NCBI RefSeq assembly: GCF_014201835.1
Contig: NZ_JACHFH010000031.1
Span: 1-34,051, forward strand
Source: Pectinatus brassicae
GTDB taxonomy: Bacteria > Bacillota > Negativicutes > Selenomonadales > Selenomonadaceae
Reading direction: 5' to 3'
Length of the DNA: 34,051 bases
Below, in pieces: positions 74 through 13,958 of the stretch (the stretch's first letter is position 1; the number at the start of each line of letters is the position of its first letter). The notes beneath the pieces were generated by a model, which was not told where the DNA came from, searched no databases, and saw only the letters and a program-made list of their open reading frames with translations. The position numbers were made by a program, and so were the translations under genes.

Positions 74-103
74 TCTTTAGTTCGTTATATATAGATTCCA
101 AAC
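74..103 (-). repeat. Degenerate terminal CRISPR repeat (trailer end)
   Basis: The last 12 bases (TAGATTCCAAAC on the plus strand) match the array repeat exactly. The other half has decayed, with about 17 of 30 positions matching overall. It is followed by a 37-nt spacer-like stretch (104-140) before the first intact repeat. Degenerate repeats normally sit at the leader-distal end. This therefore supports reading the array on the minus strand, with the leader on the right. The half lost is the crRNA 5' handle. Confidence 0.8.
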
Positions 104-140
104 TTTAGGTCTTGTCAAATATTTCTTATTAGTTGTTAGC

Positions 141-3100
141 ATTTACATTACATGCTGCTAGATTCCAAACTTATAGCAGCACTAGCTAATCCAGCAATAG
201 CAGAAACATTTACATTACATGCTGCTAGATTCCAAACGTACTAATGTGCGGAATAACACCCAGTACATTTACAATTTACATTACATGCTGCTAGATTCCA
301 AACTGACGGTTACTCTATTGAAAGTATTACTTCTACAATATTTACATTACATGCTGCTAGATTCCAAACACGTTTTTGTTCATATTTTTCAAGCTGTTCT
401 TTTATATTTACATTACATGCTGCTAGATTCCAAACCATGGGTGGTTTTACTCATGCAAGTATGCTTTATAGATTTACATTACATGCTGCTAGATTCCAAA
501 CTTGAATGGGTACGTGAGGGAAGACGAGGAGACATTAATTTACATTACATGCTGCTAGATTCCAAACCTATATATGCATATGATTACATATGTAGCAGTA
601 TAAAAATTTACATTACATGCTGCTAGATTCCAAACTACAGTATTTGATTCTTCTTTTTGCGGTTCTGCTGCATTTACATTACATGCTGCTAGATTCCAAA
701 CCGTACAATTTTTCAATCTTATGTGATACTAAATTTTATTTACATTACATGCTGCTAGATTCCAAACTTTAATAATGAATAGGAGTAAATAAACCGCTTG
801 AAAATTTACATTACATGCTGCTAGATTCCAAACTTAAGCCCATATCAGAACTACAAAAAAGAATACTAATTTACATTACATGCTGCTAGATTCCAAACTT
901 ATAATGTTTATATCAGAGCCTTCTGATATAAATATATTTACATTACATGCTGCTAGATTCCAAACGAGTGGCTAGCGCTGACTATAAAGGAGTGGCTAGC
1001 ACATTTACATTACATGCTGCTAGATTCCAAACCTAAGGTAATGGTTATATCTTCCACCCTTTTATCTAATTTACATTACATGCTGCTAGATTCCAAACAT
1101 AACTATAAGGCGCAAGAAGTGTGCTCATATATATATTTACATTACATGCTGCTAGATTCCAAACCAAAGAACATCCGTAGCACCAAACTTCATACACAGT
1201 AATTTACATTACATGCTGCTAGATTCCAAACGCATAGAAAAGTTTTACGCTTATCATCTTGATAAACATTTACATTACATGCTGCTAGATTCCAAACTTG
1301 GTTCATCCGACCATATGAAAGGTTGCTTTTCTGCATTTACATTACATGCTGCTAGATTCCAAACCATCGTGAGTGTGCTTGTGTAATTAAGCCAGTACCA
1401 ATTTACATTACATGCTGCTAGATTCCAAACGCGGATAGAACATCTTTTTTGTTCGGAATATTCCTTATTTACATTACATGCTGCTAGATTCCAAACGCTA
1501 CTAAGACAGGTTTGACTGTGCCTAATGGCTATATTTACATTACATGCTGCTAGATTCCAAACTTGATTATCATATATCCACCGCTTACGCACTTCAAAAT
1601 TTACATTACATGCTGCTAGATTCCAAACAGTACGTTAAAGTGTTAATAAGTTAATACTTTAAGGATTTACATTACATGCTGCTAGATTCCAAACTGAAAA
1701 AAGAATACCAAAATATTATCTCTAGTTATCTATTTACATTACATGCTGCTAGATTCCAAACTATGCAGTACGACATAGGTAAAGAATATACCGTTGAATT
1801 TACATTACATGCTGCTAGATTCCAAACTTTAAGCCACGAATTTTAACTGGCCTGTATAATCATAATTTACATTACATGCTGCTAGATTCCAAACAAGTCT
1901 GCCCAATTACGATATTCTTTAACTAGCGCCATTTACATTACATGCTGCTAGATTCCAAACCAAAGACAAGAAACATATTAGAGACATCATAGCTTTAATT
2001 TACATTACATGCTGCTAGATTCCAAACTGCTGGTAGGCATGGAGCGGCTATTGCTGGTGATAGATTTACATTACATGCTGCTAGATTCCAAACGCCACAG
2101 TGGCAACTAGACATGACCATGAGGTAACGATTTACATTACATGCTGCTAGATTCCAAACTAGATATGCTGCATGGGCCATCCGTACCACAAATGAATTTA
2201 CATTACATGCTGCTAGATTCCAAACTGATGATGGAAATTTGGTCATTACTGCATTAGATGCATTTACATTACATGCTGCTAGATTCCAAACTAATCTACG
2301 CCATTATAGCGCAGTTTAAATCTATTTATTTACATTACATGCTGCTAGATTCCAAACAACCGGTATTAAGAACTTAATACTCGGACTAACCTCATTTACA
2401 TTACATGCTGCTAGATTCCAAACCTTTACTTTAATTGTGTACCAGTCATCAATAAATTCATTTACATTACATGCTGCTAGATTCCAAACCTTATGATGAA
2501 AGGAATAAATAAATGAAGCTTTTAAAATTTACATTACATGCTGCTAGATTCCAAACCGTAAACAGGAGCGGCAAGCGCTTGCTGTTAAGCTGATTTACAT
2601 TACATGCTGCTAGATTCCAAACGCAATCGACAAGCCTACATACAGCTATAATATGTCCATTTACATTACATGCTGCTAGATTCCAAACTGCGCGGCGCAT
2701 AGTATCTGTTTCTCTTATATGAGATTTACATTACATGCTGCTAGATTCCAAACCAAGACTACATTTTAAAGTTAGCCAACCCCATTTATAATTTACATTA
2801 CATGCTGCTAGATTCCAAACTAAGCCACGAATTTTAACTTGCCTATATAAGCATAATTTACATTACATGCTGCTAGATTCCAAACCAACATATGAGCTAC
2901 CAGCTATTGTTATTTTTATGAATTTACATTACATGCTGCTAGATTCCAAACGGGCATATGTTCAGCTCCTTTGCTTATTTATTTCAAATTTACATTACAT
3001 GCTGCTAGATTCCAAACAAACGATGCTGAAAATATTGTCAGTAATTATTTTGAATTTACATTACATGCTGCTAGATTCCAAACACAAGTGCACCATCAGG

Positions 3101-5528
3101 ACCATATTCATTATAATATATTTACATTACATGCTGCTAGATTCCAAACATGACTATAAAGCCAGCGGTGCTTTAATGTCTACAAATTTACATTACATGC
3201 TGCTAGATTCCAAACCCAGAAGAAGTAACATGTTCAAAGTGACGTTCATTAATTTACATTACATGCTGCTAGATTCCAAACGATAGTAGTGGTGGTAATG
3301 GTTGGCTGAATATCTGATTTACATTACATGCTGCTAGATTCCAAACGGCTTATCATTGTCTGAAGCTCCTTAAGATTTCTTTATTTACATTACATGCTGC
3401 TAGATTCCAAACTTTACAAAAGAAATTTCACAGGCCACACTTCTGTTTATTTACATTACATGCTGCTAGATTCCAAACTATTATGTATCTTGCTAACTGC
3501 TGTTGTTGTAGCTAATTTACATTACATGCTGCTAGATTCCAAACCATGCAAGAGTATAAGGGGAACAACAAGTTAATTTAATTTACATTACATGCTGCTA
3601 GATTCCAAACTACCTACTGCCTGTTGAAATGAACCCTATAAATTCAATTTACATTACATGCTGCTAGATTCCAAACAGGTCATAATATAAATGACTTCAT
3701 ATATTATAATAAATTTACATTACATGCTGCTAGATTCCAAACTACTGTGACCACGATATTCAACTTTCTGTTTACGATATTTACATTACATGCTGCTAGA
3801 TTCCAAACGCGCTGGTATCAATTCTGTTTCTTCAGTGTCAAACATATTTACATTACATGCTGCTAGATTCCAAACGAAAATAAAAAGACTAACTTTTTTA
3901 ATATAGTTGCAATTTACATTACATGCTGCTAGATTCCAAACCAAATACTTTGCAGGTATATTGAGAGGTGATAATAGATTTACATTACATGCTGCTAGAT
4001 TCCAAACTGAATCATACGCAAGGCATAAAGCACATGAGCTATATTTACATTACATGCTGCTAGATTCCAAACTCAATATCAGGTAATAAAATAAGCAGGG
4101 CAGAGCCTTATTTACATTACATGCTGCTAGATTCCAAACCAAAGATATACGATATAAATACAATACAATTACAAATTTACATTACATGCTGCTAGATTCC
4201 AAACACATCAATCAAACGTTGATAAAAATTATATTGGCATATTTACATTACATGCTGCTAGATTCCAAACGCCGTTGACTTTAACGGACATATGCAAAAC
4301 CTGTGTATTTACATTACATGCTGCTAGATTCCAAACTATGCATTATTATTCATTCTTACCGCGTCCATTATCATTTACATTACATGCTGCTAGATTCCAA
4401 ACACCATTAAAAAGACTTTTAAGAATGCTTTAGCTGGCATTTACATTACATGCTGCTAGATTCCAAACAAGATTACCCAGATGATTACAAAAGTAGTGCT
4501 TACTAATTTACATTACATGCTGCTAGATTCCAAACGCAGTGCTGGTGGCGGCAAAACTTATGCATTACTTAATTTACATTACATGCTGCTAGATTCCAAA
4601 CCAGAATAGCAAATATCATATCAACAGCAGTAAGAAAATTTACATTACATGCTGCTAGATTCCAAACACCACAACAAGAAGCTGATACATTAGATTATGA
4701 TAGATTTACATTACATGCTGCTAGATTCCAAACATTAAAAGGAATATTCCTAAAATCACCTATAACATCATTTACATTACATGCTGCTAGATTCCAAACC
4801 AGTAATTAAAATAATAATGTTCTTGCCCATACTTGATTTACATTACATGCTGCTAGATTCCAAACCCATCATTTGAATTGCAGCCGGCATTCGTGAATAA
4901 ATTTACATTACATGCTGCTAGATTCCAAACCGATTTATGCCCCTTTTACTAAATGAATTGTTTCCTTATTTACATTACATGCTGCTAGATTCCAAACATC
5001 GTAAAAATGATACAGGCCCCACAAACTGTCCACAATTTACATTACATGCTGCTAGATTCCAAACATATATATCTGTGTCTGCACCTTTGAAGTCAATATC
5101 TATTTACATTACATGCTGCTAGATTCCAAACGGAAGACACTTTATACCAAATGCCATACATACACATATTTACATTACATGCTGCTAGATTCCAAACGGT
5201 ATAGATGCTACCGTATATGAAATTCAGTATGCAATTTACATTACATGCTGCTAGATTCCAAACTAATCGCCTCGATTGCTCGCTGTGACATCTCAGCCTG
5301 ATTTACATTACATGCTGCTAGATTCCAAACAAGGCATAACAAGAGGTTCATGGTACCAGATAAGCGAATTTACATTACATGCTGCTAGATTCCAAACTTG
5401 GTATATTCCAATCGGAGCAGATCTGCCCGATTCATTTACATTACATGCTGCTAGATTCCAAACAGTTCTAGAAGATTCGATAAAGGATATGTAATTTAAT
5501 TTACATTACATGCTGCTAGATTCCAAAC
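141..5528 (-). CRISPR. CRISPR array, 82 repeats of 30 nt and 81 spacers, type I-B
   Basis: I counted 82 repeat starts from 141 to 5499. Every copy I read is identical. Spacers are about 35-38 nt, giving a period near 66. On the minus strand the repeat begins GTTTGGAATCTAGC and ends GTAATGTAAAT. The ending AATGTAAAT is shared with the type I-B repeats of Clostridioides difficile and Listeria, which predicts an 8-nt crRNA 5' handle AUGUAAAU. Transcription therefore runs leftward from the leader beside cas2. The repeat lacks stop codons in several frames and creates spurious open frames across the array. Notable spacers are a near-duplicate pair (1828-1864 and 2821-2855), a hairpin spacer (899-935), an internally repeated spacer (966-1002) and one encoding a Walker A motif (4536-4571). 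Confidence 0.98.
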
Positions 5529-5714
5529 TCGATTTTTAAGTTCTCCCATATTTCCTATACTTATAACTATTATTTTGTCGCTCTAACATATTTCAATAAA
5601 AATAATATTATAAAGCTATTATACTTTAAGACAAACATATTTGCTACTGCGCTTCTAAGCTTCTGTCGCTACCCCAGTATTTTTACCTAATTATCGGTCG
5701 ACAGAAAATTACTC
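5529..5714 (-). promoter_or_regulatory. CRISPR leader with array promoter
   Basis: This AT-rich, gene-free stretch separates cas2 from the newest repeat. On the minus strand it holds TTGTCT (5629-5634), a 16-bp gap and TATAAT (5607-5612), which would start pre-crRNA about 70 nt before the first repeat. A second TATAAT lies at 5618-5623. Further upstream, arms CTGTCG (5663-5668) and CGACAG (5699-5704) form an interrupted inverted repeat that could be an integration or bending site. Its position next to cas1-cas2 and opposite the decayed repeat makes it the leader. The promoter boxes are predictions. Confidence 0.75.
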
Positions 5715-5993
5715 TCATAAAAAAGTACTTGTCTTATCCTCTTCTTTTATCACAAATTCTTTTTTCATCCATATATCATTACGTCCCTTAAAAATAATAC
5801 ATGAATCCATATCCTCTCGTAAGTATTGTTTTATTTCTATTTTTAATTGCATCATTTGACCTTCCGATAATTCTCCTTCAAATACAGAGTTTTGTATATG
5901 CGTCAAATATTTTTTACAGATTTTAAAAACATTACGTAATATTTTAGGCCCATTTCCCTCCATATTGATATCATAAACCAAAACAAGATACAT
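5715..5993 (-). CDS. cas2: CRISPR-associated endonuclease Cas2
   Basis: A 92-residue protein of normal Cas2 length. It starts MYLVLVYDIN, the first ferredoxin-fold strand with the conserved Asp at residue 8. Cas2 dimerises and bridges two Cas1 dimers to form the integrase that inserts new spacers at the leader end. The start codon lies 4 nt past the cas1 stop, and the Shine-Dalgarno (GGTGGTGA) overlaps the last cas1 codons, so translation is probably coupled. It is the last gene of the operon and faces the leader directly, as expected for the adaptation module. Confidence 0.95.
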   Translation of the reverse strand: MYLVLVYDINMEGNGPKILRNVFKICKKYLTHIQNSVFEGELSEGQMMQLKIEIKQYLREDMDSCIIFKGRNDIWMKKEFVIKEEDKTSTFL

Positions 5994-7004: not shown

Positions 7005-7493
7005 TTATATATAACAAAATTCATAATATGCACACGATTTACATGCTGCTTTTTTATCTGTTGATGGTGGAACTGATAAATTTAATATTTCATTTATTGC
7101 CTGCAAATTTTCTTCTATTTGACAGCTATCTTGCTCGCTTAATTCCACATCTTCACTAATACGTTCTTTAGGTATAACAAGGCGTCCTTTTATATGCATT
7201 AAATTATGCTGCTGTAAAATATATAAATAATATTTTATCTGATTTATTGCCATCTGCTTTTCTTTTTTGCTTTTTTTTACTTCACAAACTATACCATTAT
7301 TAATGTAATCAATATTTATAGTATCATCGATTAAAATATGCTTATTTTCTCGTTTATACGTAGATTCATCAATAAGCTTACCTATAAAAACAGCTTCACT
7401 TTCCTGTTCCATATTTATATCATGCGCAAACAACCATAATTTACGTTTACATAAAAAATAATAAGAATACATTACACCGGTTATTTTTTTCAT
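7005..7493 (-). CDS. cas4: CRISPR-associated exonuclease Cas4
   Basis: A 162-residue Cas4 of the short type I form. Four cysteines for the Fe-S cluster are present: C15 in FLCKRK, then C151, C154 and C160 in CKSCAYYEFC. The RecB-like nuclease residues are visible as D62, E71 and K73 (CEVKKSK) with Q85 in a downstream helix. Cas4 trims prespacers and selects for the PAM before Cas1-Cas2 integration. It lies 19 nt after cas3 and 14 nt before cas1, with GAGGG before its ATG. Confidence 0.95.
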   Translation of the reverse strand: MKKITGVMYSYYFLCKRKLWLFAHDINMEQESEAVFIGKLIDESTYKRENKHILIDDTINIDYINNGIVCEVKKSKKEKQMAINQIKYYLYILQQHNLMHIKGRLVIPKERISEDVELSEQDSCQIEENLQAINEILNLSVPPSTDKKAACKSCAYYEFCYI

Positions 7494-7512: not shown

Positions 7513-9801
7513 CTATATTATATTATTTTCATCTTCTGGTTTATCGATTTCTATTCCTATTCCTGTATTATCTGCTTCTGAAAAATCATATTTACACCAA
7601 GCTTTATGTATATTTAATTTTTTACTATTATTCAATAAGCACTTATCTATATAACGACTATTATTAAACAATGTATTAGCCGGAATATCAACAGTATATT
7701 GGCGTATTTTTTCTTCTAAAAGCATGTTTTCTGGCAATGTCATTTTTCTGCTTTTTTCCAATGAATCAATTGCACTTTCCAAATCGGTATTATCTGTTAA
7801 CAATGCATCAGGTAATATTGATACGCTTTGAATATTCCTAAATAATTTTCTTGCTTGTTCTTGATTTATGGAGTTATATAAAAGTTTTTTCAATGTTTGT
7901 AAGTTCTTTTTTATTTGTAAATAATATTGACTGTTTTTTAATGAGTCTACTGCATAAACTGCATCAATATATTTAAATTTTTCTTTTTCTGTAAATATTT
8001 CCCCATCATATTGTTGTAATAACTGCCATGAATTATCATTTATTTCAGTAAATTTATATACCGATTTTTCGCCTATACCATTTCCCGTATTATAAATATA
8101 GACATTAATCTGTCCATCAGGATATTTATCTTCATACTTCTCGGTTCGACAGCAACGTCCCATCCGCTGCAATAAACTATCTGCCGGACACATTTCTGTA
8201 AATAAAACATCATAACTGATATCCAAACTGGCTTCAACTATCTGGGTGCTTATCCAAATAATCGGCTTATCGCTCTTAGCATCTTCTTTAATTGCTCTTT
8301 CCAACGCAGCCCTATCCTTACGTACAAAGCGGCTATGCAGTAGTTTTATTATTACTTTTTCTTCAAATTCGTCATTATAACTTTTTAATTTATTATATGT
8401 ATCTTGTGCTTTTTTTACTGTATTACAAAGCACTAATACTTTCTGTTGCTGTCCCATGGTAAATATTTTTTCATAATCAAATTCACTATTGATACATTTT
8501 ATTTTATGCCGTTCAGAACATTCTTTAACAAAATATTTTTCCTGCGGCGGTATAAATTTTATCTTTTCTTCACGCATAATTTCCTGTAAAATTGGCGGGA
8601 ATGTCGCTGTTATTATAGCAAACTTGCCACCTAATTCCGTAATCGTTTTCAATCCACATAATATATAAGCCAATATATCCGGTGAATACATTTGTATTTC
8701 ATCAATTATTATCCGAGAATATTTAAGTGTTGCCGGAATCATTTCTGTGCCTGCTGCCTTAAAGACAAAATAAAATAATTGATCTACAGTACAAATTGTT
8801 AATGGATATGATAATAATCGTGCTTTATTCTGTCGTTCTAATGTTTCCTCTATCACTTCTATTTTTTCTTTATCGCTATTTTGCTCTAAATAATAAGAAA
8901 ATAATCCCGAATGCAATAATGTTATTTTTTCTTTATCATAGCCATAGTCATCACAAATACGGTCATGTATCGCATTAATAGATACTTTTAATGGCAGCGT
9001 ATAAAAGGTTTTATATCCATCAAGCCATAATAAAGCTGCTTCTGTTTTTCCACAGCCCGTCGAGGCAATAACTACCAAATTATCATCTTTATGTTGCTGC
9101 ATATATTTTTGCACCGGTCGCAACTGCCAGTTTTTTTCTTTCAATTGGTTTATTATTTTTTTTGTTAAAAAATCTATTGCTGGTGGAGTAATTTCCAGTT
9201 CTTTCATATCACCACTGGCAGCATAGTCGATACGATTCAGCATCCCTTTAATAACTATATATTTTAATAATATCTCTGCCTTTATCGGTTTACCGCCATC
9301 AATTCTATTTCGTAGCCCAGGTATAATATATTTTAAAAACTTAGCACTATTATCCATCATTTTATATTCTTTATTAGTGATTTCATCTATATATATTTCT
9401 GGCAAATACCTATTTATATAATCTTTTAATTTCTCTGTATTACAAAAATCATCTCGTGTATGATGATTATATATTGCTGTCATTAATATACGTATATCCG
9501 TTTTTAGTGCTTCATCTTTATTTATTTCTTTTTTAATATCTTGACTAAAAAAATACGCACAACTAAAAAAACCATGTGGCATTTCATCTTCAATTCTAAT
9601 TTTATTATTTTGTATTTTTCTTTGAAACAGTGCATTTAATTTACCCAAATCGTGATATTCAATTGCCTTTGAAATAAGTTGTTGTTCATTTTGCGTAAAT
9701 ATTTTGGGATATATAATTAAAAATTTCTGCCATATATTTTGCAAGTCCATTGTATGCCTTGCAATAGTTATTTGTGGCGCAGATTTGGCCCAATATGCCA
9801 T
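7513..9801 (-). CDS. cas3: CRISPR-associated nuclease-helicase Cas3 (HD plus DExD/H)
   Basis: About 762 residues from the chosen ATG, which has AAGGAG 11 nt upstream; an in-frame ATG 30 nt earlier lies inside the preceding terminator hairpin and has no ribosome site. The N-terminal HD nuclease shows H50-D51 (EYHDLGKL), H76 and H113-H114. The helicase follows, with RPVQ near 228, Walker A STGCGKT near 247-253, DEIQ at 367-370, TAT near 398-400, and a C-terminal QRMGRCCR arginine-finger motif. Cas3 is recruited by target-bound Cascade and nicks, unwinds and degrades the DNA. It opens the second half of the operon, just behind a hairpin terminator. Confidence 0.96.
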   Translation of the reverse strand: MAYWAKSAPQITIARHTMDLQNIWQKFLIIYPKIFTQNEQQLISKAIEYHDLGKLNALFQRKIQNNKIRIEDEMPHGFFSCAYFFSQDIKKEINKDEALKTDIRILMTAIYNHHTRDDFCNTEKLKDYINRYLPEIYIDEITNKEYKMMDNSAKFLKYIIPGLRNRIDGGKPIKAEILLKYIVIKGMLNRIDYAASGDMKELEITPPAIDFLTKKIINQLKEKNWQLRPVQKYMQQHKDDNLVVIASTGCGKTEAALLWLDGYKTFYTLPLKVSINAIHDRICDDYGYDKEKITLLHSGLFSYYLEQNSDKEKIEVIEETLERQNKARLLSYPLTICTVDQLFYFVFKAAGTEMIPATLKYSRIIIDEIQMYSPDILAYILCGLKTITELGGKFAIITATFPPILQEIMREEKIKFIPPQEKYFVKECSERHKIKCINSEFDYEKIFTMGQQQKVLVLCNTVKKAQDTYNKLKSYNDEFEEKVIIKLLHSRFVRKDRAALERAIKEDAKSDKPIIWISTQIVEASLDISYDVLFTEMCPADSLLQRMGRCCRTEKYEDKYPDGQINVYIYNTGNGIGEKSVYKFTEINDNSWQLLQQYDGEIFTEKEKFKYIDAVYAVDSLKNSQYYLQIKKNLQTLKKLLYNSINQEQARKLFRNIQSVSILPDALLTDNTDLESAIDSLEKSRKMTLPENMLLEEKIRQYTVDIPANTLFNNSRYIDKCLLNNSKKLNIHKAWCKYDFSEADNTGIGIEIDKPEDENNII

Positions 9802-9820
9802 AACAATTAATCTCCTTTGT

Positions 9821-9865
9821 AAAAAAGGCATTAGTATATTACCTTCTATATACTAATGCCTTTTT

Positions 9866-9867
<2 letters not shown>
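9821..9867. terminator. Bidirectional hairpin terminator between cas5 and cas3
   Basis: A perfect 13-bp stem, 9827-9839 pairing with 9848-9860, has an 8-nt loop and T-tracts on both sides (six T on the minus strand, seven on the plus). It starts right after the cas5 stop and ends just before the cas3 Shine-Dalgarno, with no room for a new promoter. It should lower transcription of cas3-cas4-cas1-cas2 relative to the Cascade genes. Confidence 0.85.
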
Positions 9868-11471
<1,604 letters not shown>

Positions 11472-13212: not shown

Positions 13213-13935
13213 TTAGTAAATTTTTTCAAACAAGCCAAATCCAATCGAACGATTTGCTCCTATCCCCGCTTTATAGAGTATATTTAATAACTCGGGCTTA
13301 CCTTGTAAATGTAAAACACCAATAGTTCCGTCACAGGTATGCTTAAAAGTTTTCACCACACATTTCTTGACCTGCACTGGTGTAATTGAAAAACCAATTA
13401 ATAAAGATGTGCTTAATCCCATCATCGCAATCTGTGCTGTTATCGCTGCTTTGGCTTGCTCAGCAAAATCATTATCATCATATTTTACATAACGATTAGT
13501 ATTATTTTCTTTATTATGAACACGTATTATAAATGGCGACAACATTTTTATAATTAACTGTGTCTGAGTAATTTTATGTTCCGGTAAAATAAGGATTTTC
13601 TCCAAAGTCATGGCATTATCATCACATAATTCAAACATCTTATCTTTTCGTCCTAAAAAAGCATTATAGAAGATAATGGCATCACGTTCATCAGCTGCCG
13701 ACCAATTAAGCTCAATCTTATCTGTGGCTAAAATAATTTTATTTGCTTTAAATTCAGGCTTAGGAATTCTTACAGAAAAAGCGTAGTTTTTTATTTTTGC
13801 ACCATTGTTATAATATAAGTCAAAAAATCTTTTATCATAATTATCTAAGGCACCTTTCATAAAAGATACGCAAGCTGCTCTATAGTCTATAGGCAATTGT
13901 AGTTTTTTTAAAGAAAATTTTAATTGTATTCTCAT
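13213..13935 (-). CDS. cas6: CRISPR RNA endonuclease Cas6 (type I-B)
   Basis: About 240 residues from MRIQLKFSLKK. The Shine-Dalgarno AGGAGGTG lies just before this ATG and inside the frame of an upstream ATG (13953), so the downstream start is right. The C-terminal glycine-rich loop GIGANRSIGFG, a Cas6 hallmark, sits about 15 residues from the end. Cas6 cuts pre-crRNA at the base of each repeat, leaving the 8-nt handle. Oddly, there is no His in the first 110 or so residues, where many Cas6 enzymes carry the general base. It is the first cas gene of the operon. Confidence 0.92.
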   Translation of the reverse strand: MRIQLKFSLKKLQLPIDYRAACVSFMKGALDNYDKRFFDLYYNNGAKIKNYAFSVRIPKPEFKANKIILATDKIELNWSAADERDAIIFYNAFLGRKDKMFELCDDNAMTLEKILILPEHKITQTQLIIKMLSPFIIRVHNKENNTNRYVKYDDNDFAEQAKAAITAQIAMMGLSTSLLIGFSITPVQVKKCVVKTFKHTCDGTIGVLHLQGKPELLNILYKAGIGANRSIGFGLFEKIY

Positions 13936-13958
13936 ATTTTCACCTCCTAACATTTTAA

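What the first reader, a model, noticed from the sequence alone, without database searches (positions are those of the whole stretch)
1828..2855. Two spacers differ by three bases
Seen: spacers 1828-1864 and 2821-2855 share 32 of 35 aligned bases (both contain AAGCCACGAATTTTAACT). In crRNA orientation the mismatches fall at positions 5, 11 and 16, while the distal 19 are identical. They were acquired about 15 spacers apart. Inference: sampling of the same locus from related phages, possibly after escape changes in the seed-proximal half.
Basis: partly seen in the sequence, partly recalled or inferred. Interest (0 to 1): 0.6.

Follow-up and report, generated by a model that had tools for sequence, protein, structure and literature searches.

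The report
Near-twin spacers in a CRISPR array
A bacterial immune memory array holds two almost identical entries that were most likely recorded on two separate occasions from the same spot in related viruses, which is ordinary behaviour for such systems.

Summary
Spacers 1828-1864 (37 nt, S56 counted from the leader) and 2821-2855 (35 nt, S41) agree at 32 of 35 aligned bases; in crRNA orientation the mismatches are at 5, 11 and 16 and the PAM-side ends coincide. The pair scores 29; the next best of 3,240 pairs scores 14, simulated arrays reach 11-14. The array belongs to a type I-B system of the genus Pectinatus.

Best reading: two separate acquisitions from the same PAM-defined site in related phages or other mobile elements. 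Copying plus mutation is unlikely: all 82 full repeats are identical and the spacers end differently on the distal side. No source was found in the collections searched, so the gene, its PAM and a two-copy origin stay open. Escape is possible, since position 5 is a seed position in two studied I-B systems, but not shown: all three mismatches within the first 16 positions has chance probability 0.09. Random re-sampling needs no special mechanism. A CCN PAM has indirect, mixed support. Ordinary; low interest.

The parts
104..5528 (-). Type I-B CRISPR array: 82 identical 30-nt repeats (141-5528) and 82 spacers, the oldest (104-140) bounded by the degenerate repeat
1828..1864 (-). Spacer S56 (37 nt), older member of the pair
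2821..2855 (-). Spacer S41 (35 nt), newer member of the pair, 32 of 35 identical, same PAM-side end
74..103 (-). Degenerate terminal repeat marking the old end of the array
   Evidence: sequence
5529..5714 (-). Leader, conserved with both arrays of congener G046
4734..4769 (-). Spacer S12, matches faecal phage MT835474.1 at 31 of 36 with CCA directly upstream (PAM support)
5715..5993 (-). cas2
   Evidence: TIGR01573
5998..6990 (-). cas1 (type I-B Cas1b)
   Evidence: TIGR03641, 454.8 bits over cut-off 304.1
7005..7493 (-). cas4
   Evidence: TIGR00372, 71.3 bits over cut-off 65
7513..9831 (-). cas3 (helicase and HD nuclease)
   Evidence: TIGR01587 and TIGR01596; Cas3b
9866..10597 (-). cas5b (Tneap subtype)
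   Evidence: TIGR01895
10581..11492 (-). cas7b (Cst2/DevR, I-B/Tneap)
   Evidence: TIGR02585
11492..13195 (-). cas8b
   Evidence: PDLC02050 E 1.5e-105; PF09706; no NCBIfam hit
13213..13953 (-). cas6b
   Evidence: TIGR01877

Best explanation
S56 and S41 were acquired in two separate events, about 15 insertions apart, by the same type I-B adaptation machinery (Cas1-Cas2-Cas4). Both came from the same PAM-defined site in homologous DNA of two related phages (or other mobile elements) whose sequences differed there by ordinary divergence. Shown: the near-identity, the common PAM-side end, the different PAM-distal ends, the order in the array, a full I-B gene set. Inferred: that the source is phage, that a CCN PAM flanks it, and that the newer crRNA restores targeting which the older one does poorly because of the position-5 seed mismatch.
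For: Pair score 29 against a null maximum of 14. The PAM-side ends coincide exactly while the distal ends differ by 2 nt, as expected if each acquisition is anchored at the PAM. All 82 full repeats are identical, so mutation of a copied spacer inside the array is unlikely: P(3 or more substitutions in 72 nt) about 1e-4 to 2e-4 even if the repeat mutation rate is set at 3-3.7 per 2,460 nt. No neighbouring spacer is duplicated. Where copying is seen in the genus, in G043 contig C17, it gave four tandem two-spacer blocks, seven of eight spacer copies exact and one with a single change. Among 336 distinct spacers of three genomes the two pairs with the highest ungapped identity are both in exact register: S56/S41 (32/35) and, across species, L080+645 / L082-6743 (25/36), though the second leads the next pair, out of register, only narrowly (0.694 against 0.690). 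Phage-like DNA holds about 1,700-2,700 CCW sites per 40 kb, so among 82 spacers 0.04-3.3 coincident pairs are expected for 1-30 equally sampled phage families and 1,000-2,500 usable sites: one pair needs no special cause.
Against: No protospacer for either spacer was found: 7 patterns in viral contigs (only one search gave a hit, one contig, 14-15 mismatches overall), phages (with S56: 7 records, none covering 80% of it; with the whole array: one record, matching another spacer), plasmids (no match), genome contigs (39 stretches with the 18-mer; 38 of 39 had at least 10 mismatches to S56 and at least 8 to S41, and one, L023, is cut at its end and was not scored), and 189 family genomes at up to 3 mismatches of the 32-mer (the array only). 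So relatedness of the two sources is deduced from the spacers alone. The frame open in both (KPRILTGLYNH / KPRILTCLYKH) has one silent change in three, no clear sign of purifying selection. The coincidence estimate rests on an assumed number of phage families. At the looser 60% identity level register zero is not enriched among spacer pairs.
Confidence: 0.72

Rival explanations
1. Escape and re-capture: a phage descended from the one sampled as S56 escaped through changes in the site (position 5 in the seed) and was then sampled again at the same PAM, possibly by primed adaptation set off by the S56 crRNA.
For: Position 5 is a seed position in Thermotoga maritima I-B (mismatches at 1-5 and 7 gave little or no binding; PMC13199841, passages) and in Haloferax volcanii I-B (first 10 nt except position 6; PMC4390866, passages). 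The mismatches lie in the PAM-side 16 nt. Priming starts near the recognised protospacer in a type I system (PMC5059440, part of the abstract and passages).
Against: All three within the first 16 positions has chance probability 0.086, and at least one within the six Thermotoga seed positions 0.44. Positions 11 and 16 lie outside both measured seeds, so at least two of the changes need another cause. Neither source phage is known.
Confidence: 0.17
2. Two copies in one element: the spacers come from two paralogous loci of a single phage or other mobile element.
For: Not excluded, since no protospacer was found.
Against: No positive sign; none of the other 79 spacers compared has a near-twin.
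Confidence: 0.08
3. Copy inside the array followed by mutation: one spacer-repeat unit was duplicated and drifted.
For: Duplication of spacer blocks is known (review PMC8047081, passages) and is seen in the congener G043, contig C17, once with a single base change.
Against: 82 identical repeats, 35 against 37 nt length, 14 unrelated spacers in between, no copied neighbour; P about 1e-4.
Confidence: 0.02
4. Chance similarity of unrelated spacers.
For: None found.
Against: Score 29 against a maximum of 14 in 30 simulated arrays.
Confidence: 0.001

Closest known systems
Type I-B CRISPR-Cas, Tneap/Cst2 branch (Thermotoga maritima I-B1 is placed beside it from recall)
   Same: Cas1b, Cas2, Cas4, Cas3, Cas5t, Cas7/Cst2 (I-B/Tneap), Cas8b and Cas6 by profile; CCN beside three related protospacers.
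   Different: No difference of kind seen. The repeat was found within 3 mismatches in 2 of 5 genomes of the genus, the own one included; the leader was compared with the other of these two. Proteins were not aligned with the Thermotoga ones.
Clostridioides difficile type I-B system
   Same: PAM: CCW predicted earlier, YCN by library, 5' side (PMC8406132, passages); the three PAMs here (CCA, CCA, CCG) fit it.
   Different: Cas genes were not compared directly here.
Repeated sampling of one virus lineage by CRISPR arrays (e.g. Sulfolobus islandicus, cited in PMC8047081, passages)
   Same: Non-identical spacers that trace to one viral source.
   Different: That case compares arrays of different isolates; here both spacers sit in one array and start at the same site.

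Membership tests
[quoted passage not shown]
   TIGR01587 247.2 bits over cut-off 102.45 and TIGR01596 59.9 over 43.45; Cas3b E 2.8e-217
[quoted passage not shown]
   PDLC02050 E 1.5e-105; PF09706 over cut-off; no NCBIfam hit
[quoted passage not shown]
   TIGR01895, TIGR02585 and TIGR01877 over cut-off
[quoted passage not shown]
   TIGR03641, TIGR01573 and TIGR00372 over cut-off
[quoted passage not shown]
   For: one spacer of this array (S12, 5 mismatches, CCA) and two of the congener G043 (7 mismatches each, CCA and CCG); the best reversed-spacer controls had 10 mismatches. Against: matches with 6 and 7 mismatches without the motif in BLAST-picked loci (S21 in L087, S38 in L066). No PAM known for the pair itself
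Independent acquisitions from homologous protospacers | Same PAM-side register, different distal ends | tested here: met
Independent acquisitions from homologous protospacers | Both variants present in related phages beside the PAM | tested here: inconclusive
   No protospacer in any collection searched
Array-internal duplication | Identical length and copied neighbouring units | tested here: not met
   35 against 37 nt; no copied neighbour

The most novel reading that the evidence does not exclude
The array records memory updating: after a phage escaped S56 by seed change, the mismatched S56 crRNA primed re-acquisition of the very same site, so that one array keeps both the outdated and the corrected version of one entry. 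The two would then be a dated record of one step of an arms race.
Probability: 0.12. Interest if true: 0.5.

Novelty: new member of a known kind. Interest (0 to 1): 0.2.

Why it matters
If the two source elements were found, the pair would give two ordered snapshots of one site in one phage lineage that meets Pectinatus. As it stands it is an ordinary result of random sampling by a long array.

Tried and rejected
The 18-mer core hits in genome contigs (39 stretches) looked promising but are chance: 38 of 39 had at least 10 mismatches to S56 and at least 8 to S41. Many carry the core inside a QVKIRG stretch (translated in six loci among the rows printed; that this is a peptide-synthetase motif is recalled). 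The Pectinatus cerevisiiphilus hit (L036) has 11-12 mismatches and lies in an open reading frame that looks like a dihydrodipicolinate-synthase-type gene (my reading of the translation; not scanned against a library). L023 is cut at the locus end and its printed value 0 is a script artefact. The viral-contig hit L003 has 14-15 mismatches. Codon-degenerate patterns for three reading frames of the site found nothing in viral contigs. A six-frame search for the encoded peptides in 95 fetched loci (729,823 bases, some overlapping) gave in the 30 best rows printed only by-products of the 18-mer and weak matches. Stretches around two terminase genes of the genus (found in 2 of 5 genomes; fetched) and the phage MT835474.1 held no match to the pair (best 13 of 35 mismatches). 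Of five weak family hits with E 0.0005-0.009 (where at most two candidates per genome were scored), those in L085 and L086 were not among the rows printed, those in L087 and L089 lack CCN, and one in L088 (S39, 10 mismatches) has CCC but an indel-like end and was not counted. Whether the mismatches fit the every-sixth-base rule of type I effectors (6, 12, 18) was considered: they are at 5, 11, 16, so no.

Paper searches: 'nearly identical spacers' with CRISPR gave 2 papers, both software by title (listing); Pectinatus with CRISPR gave 19, of which the 10 listed did not look to be about Pectinatus arrays by title and abstract start. (listings of 1, 0 and 4) showed no paper on this kind of pair by title and abstract start. 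Searches were used to find papers on seed, PAM and priming. PMC7056967 was opened and held none of the terms searched. I make no claim that the phenomenon is unreported.

Full report
What is there. Window 104-5528 is a CRISPR array of 82 identical 30-nt repeats and 82 spacers, the oldest bounded by a degenerate repeat at 74-103. The crRNA strand is the minus strand: the leader, 5529-5714 next to cas2, is conserved with both arrays of a congener, G046. Upstream in that sense lie cas2, cas1, cas4, cas3, cas5b, cas7b, cas8b and cas6b, a full type I-B set with Tneap/Cst2-type Cas5 and Cas7. The genus is Pectinatus: genome G043 of the same genus carries the sequence of a Pectinatus cerevisiiphilus DSM 20467 contig around the 18-mer hit (the first 200 bases of L043 lie in L036; its last 200 do not, as L043 should run past the end of L036). 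The species of the window was not determined.

The observation. S56 (1828-1864) and S41 (2821-2855) agree at 32 of 35 bases with mismatches at crRNA positions 5, 11 and 16. Among 3,240 pairs of the 81 spacers lying between full repeats (the oldest spacer was left out), the pair scores 29 and the next best 14, both orientations tried; 30 simulated arrays, one orientation, gave maxima of 11-14.

Copying or capture. The array's repeats are invariant, the two spacers differ in length only at the PAM-distal end, 14 unrelated spacers lie between them and no neighbour is copied. With a generous mutation rate taken from the repeats, three substitutions in the two spacers have a probability of about 1e-4 to 2e-4. 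In genome G043, contig C17, spacer duplication does occur, but as four tandem two-spacer blocks in which seven of eight copies are exact and one has a single change. Two captures are therefore far more likely than one capture and a copy.

Same site. Both captures start at exactly the same base on the PAM side. In a register test over 336 distinct spacers of three genomes (344 less 8 tandem copies), offsets -8 to +8 and both orientations, 11 pairs reached 65% identity; two of them are in register zero and these are the two highest: S56/S41 and a cross-species pair, L080+645 / L082-6743, at 25 of 36 (0.694), with an out-of-register pair close behind at 20 of 29 (0.690). At the 60% level register zero is not enriched (6 pairs; other offsets in the same orientation 0-9), so the general test is weak and the second pair is a lead only.

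How surprising is it. Phage-like stretches scanned here hold about 1,700-2,700 CCW sites per 40 kb. If 82 spacers are drawn at random from 1-30 equally common phage families with 1,000-2,500 usable sites each, 0.04-3.3 same-site pairs are expected. The number of families is assumed, not measured. One pair is within that range and needs no hotspot and no special mechanism.

Search for the source. Seven patterns in viral contigs, blastn against phages and plasmids, one pattern scan of genome contigs and 189 family genomes at up to 3 mismatches (which by their handles examined the same 189) found no protospacer. The own genome holds the site only in the array (18-mer at up to 2 mismatches; 32-mer at up to 3), so there is no self-target of the pair at that level.

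PAM. In a scan of 344 spacers against nine stretches (two terminase-bearing regions of the genus, probably prophages, and the phage MT835474.1) the only three matches with 7 or fewer mismatches all have CCN directly upstream: S12 on MT835474.1 (5 mismatches, CCA), and two G043 spacers on a G045 region near a terminase gene (7 mismatches each, CCA and CCG); reversed-spacer controls reached 10 mismatches at best. One further match with 8 mismatches has TCA, which would fit the YCN motif of C. difficile (PMC8406132, passages); two with 9, from one duplicated spacer, have no such motif. In an earlier scan of 22 loci, most of them picked because BLAST had matched a spacer there, two AT-rich matches with 6 and 7 mismatches had no such motif (S21 in L087, S38 in L066), nor had one with 9 (S11 in L053); controls there also began at 10. 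The PAM evidence is therefore favourable but mixed.

Escape or drift. In T. maritima I-B, mismatches at positions 1-5 and 7 gave little or no binding, while position 9 was tolerated (PMC13199841, passages); in H. volcanii I-B the first ten positions except 6 are needed (PMC4390866, passages). By that standard the S56 crRNA would probably bind the S41 site poorly, because of position 5, and a second spacer would be useful. But the placing of the three changes is not significant (P 0.086; at least one in the six seed positions 0.44), and two of the three lie outside both seeds. In the one frame open in both spacers the changes are one silent and two amino-acid changes. So escape is possible but not shown.

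Verdict. It is an ordinary feature of a long type I-B array.

Noticed in passing
window 4734-4769 (S12); L090 1801-1836 (MT835474.1): Spacer S12 matches an unannotated phage from human faeces at 31 of 36 with CCA directly upstream; the phage reading there looks like a DNA methyltransferase (DPPH motif, my reading).
   Followed up: partly
L080 645-680 and L082, counted on the reverse complement, from 6743: Spacers of two genomes of the genus agree at 25 of 36 in exact register and read as similar peptides (by eye): possibly the same phage gene sampled at the same PAM in two host species. Statistically borderline.
   Followed up: partly
L082 (G043 contig C17), counted on the reverse complement: spacers starting 4171-4370, 8261-8459, 9580-9777, 10899-11098: Four tandem duplications of two-spacer blocks in a very long array (179 repeats found in the stretch), one copy with a single base change.
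   Followed up: no
L098 around 12087 and 12696 (G045): A region near a terminase gene of one congener is matched by two spacers of another congener (7 mismatches each, CCA and CCG), which suggests shared prophages in the genus.
   Followed up: partly
L080 149-777 (G000 contig C20): The same genome has a second, short array with the same repeat (9 spacers); the sequence before it does not resemble the leader of the window's array and holds a partial repeat at about 93-112.
   Followed up: no
L081 (G046 905050-918141): A congener has two arrays with nearly identical leaders about 10 kb apart; near the end of one, two repeats lie 336 nt apart instead of one spacer length.
   Followed up: no
window 966-1002 (S69): Spacer S69 contains an internal direct repeat (GCTAGCCACTC twice on the crRNA strand).
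   Followed up: no
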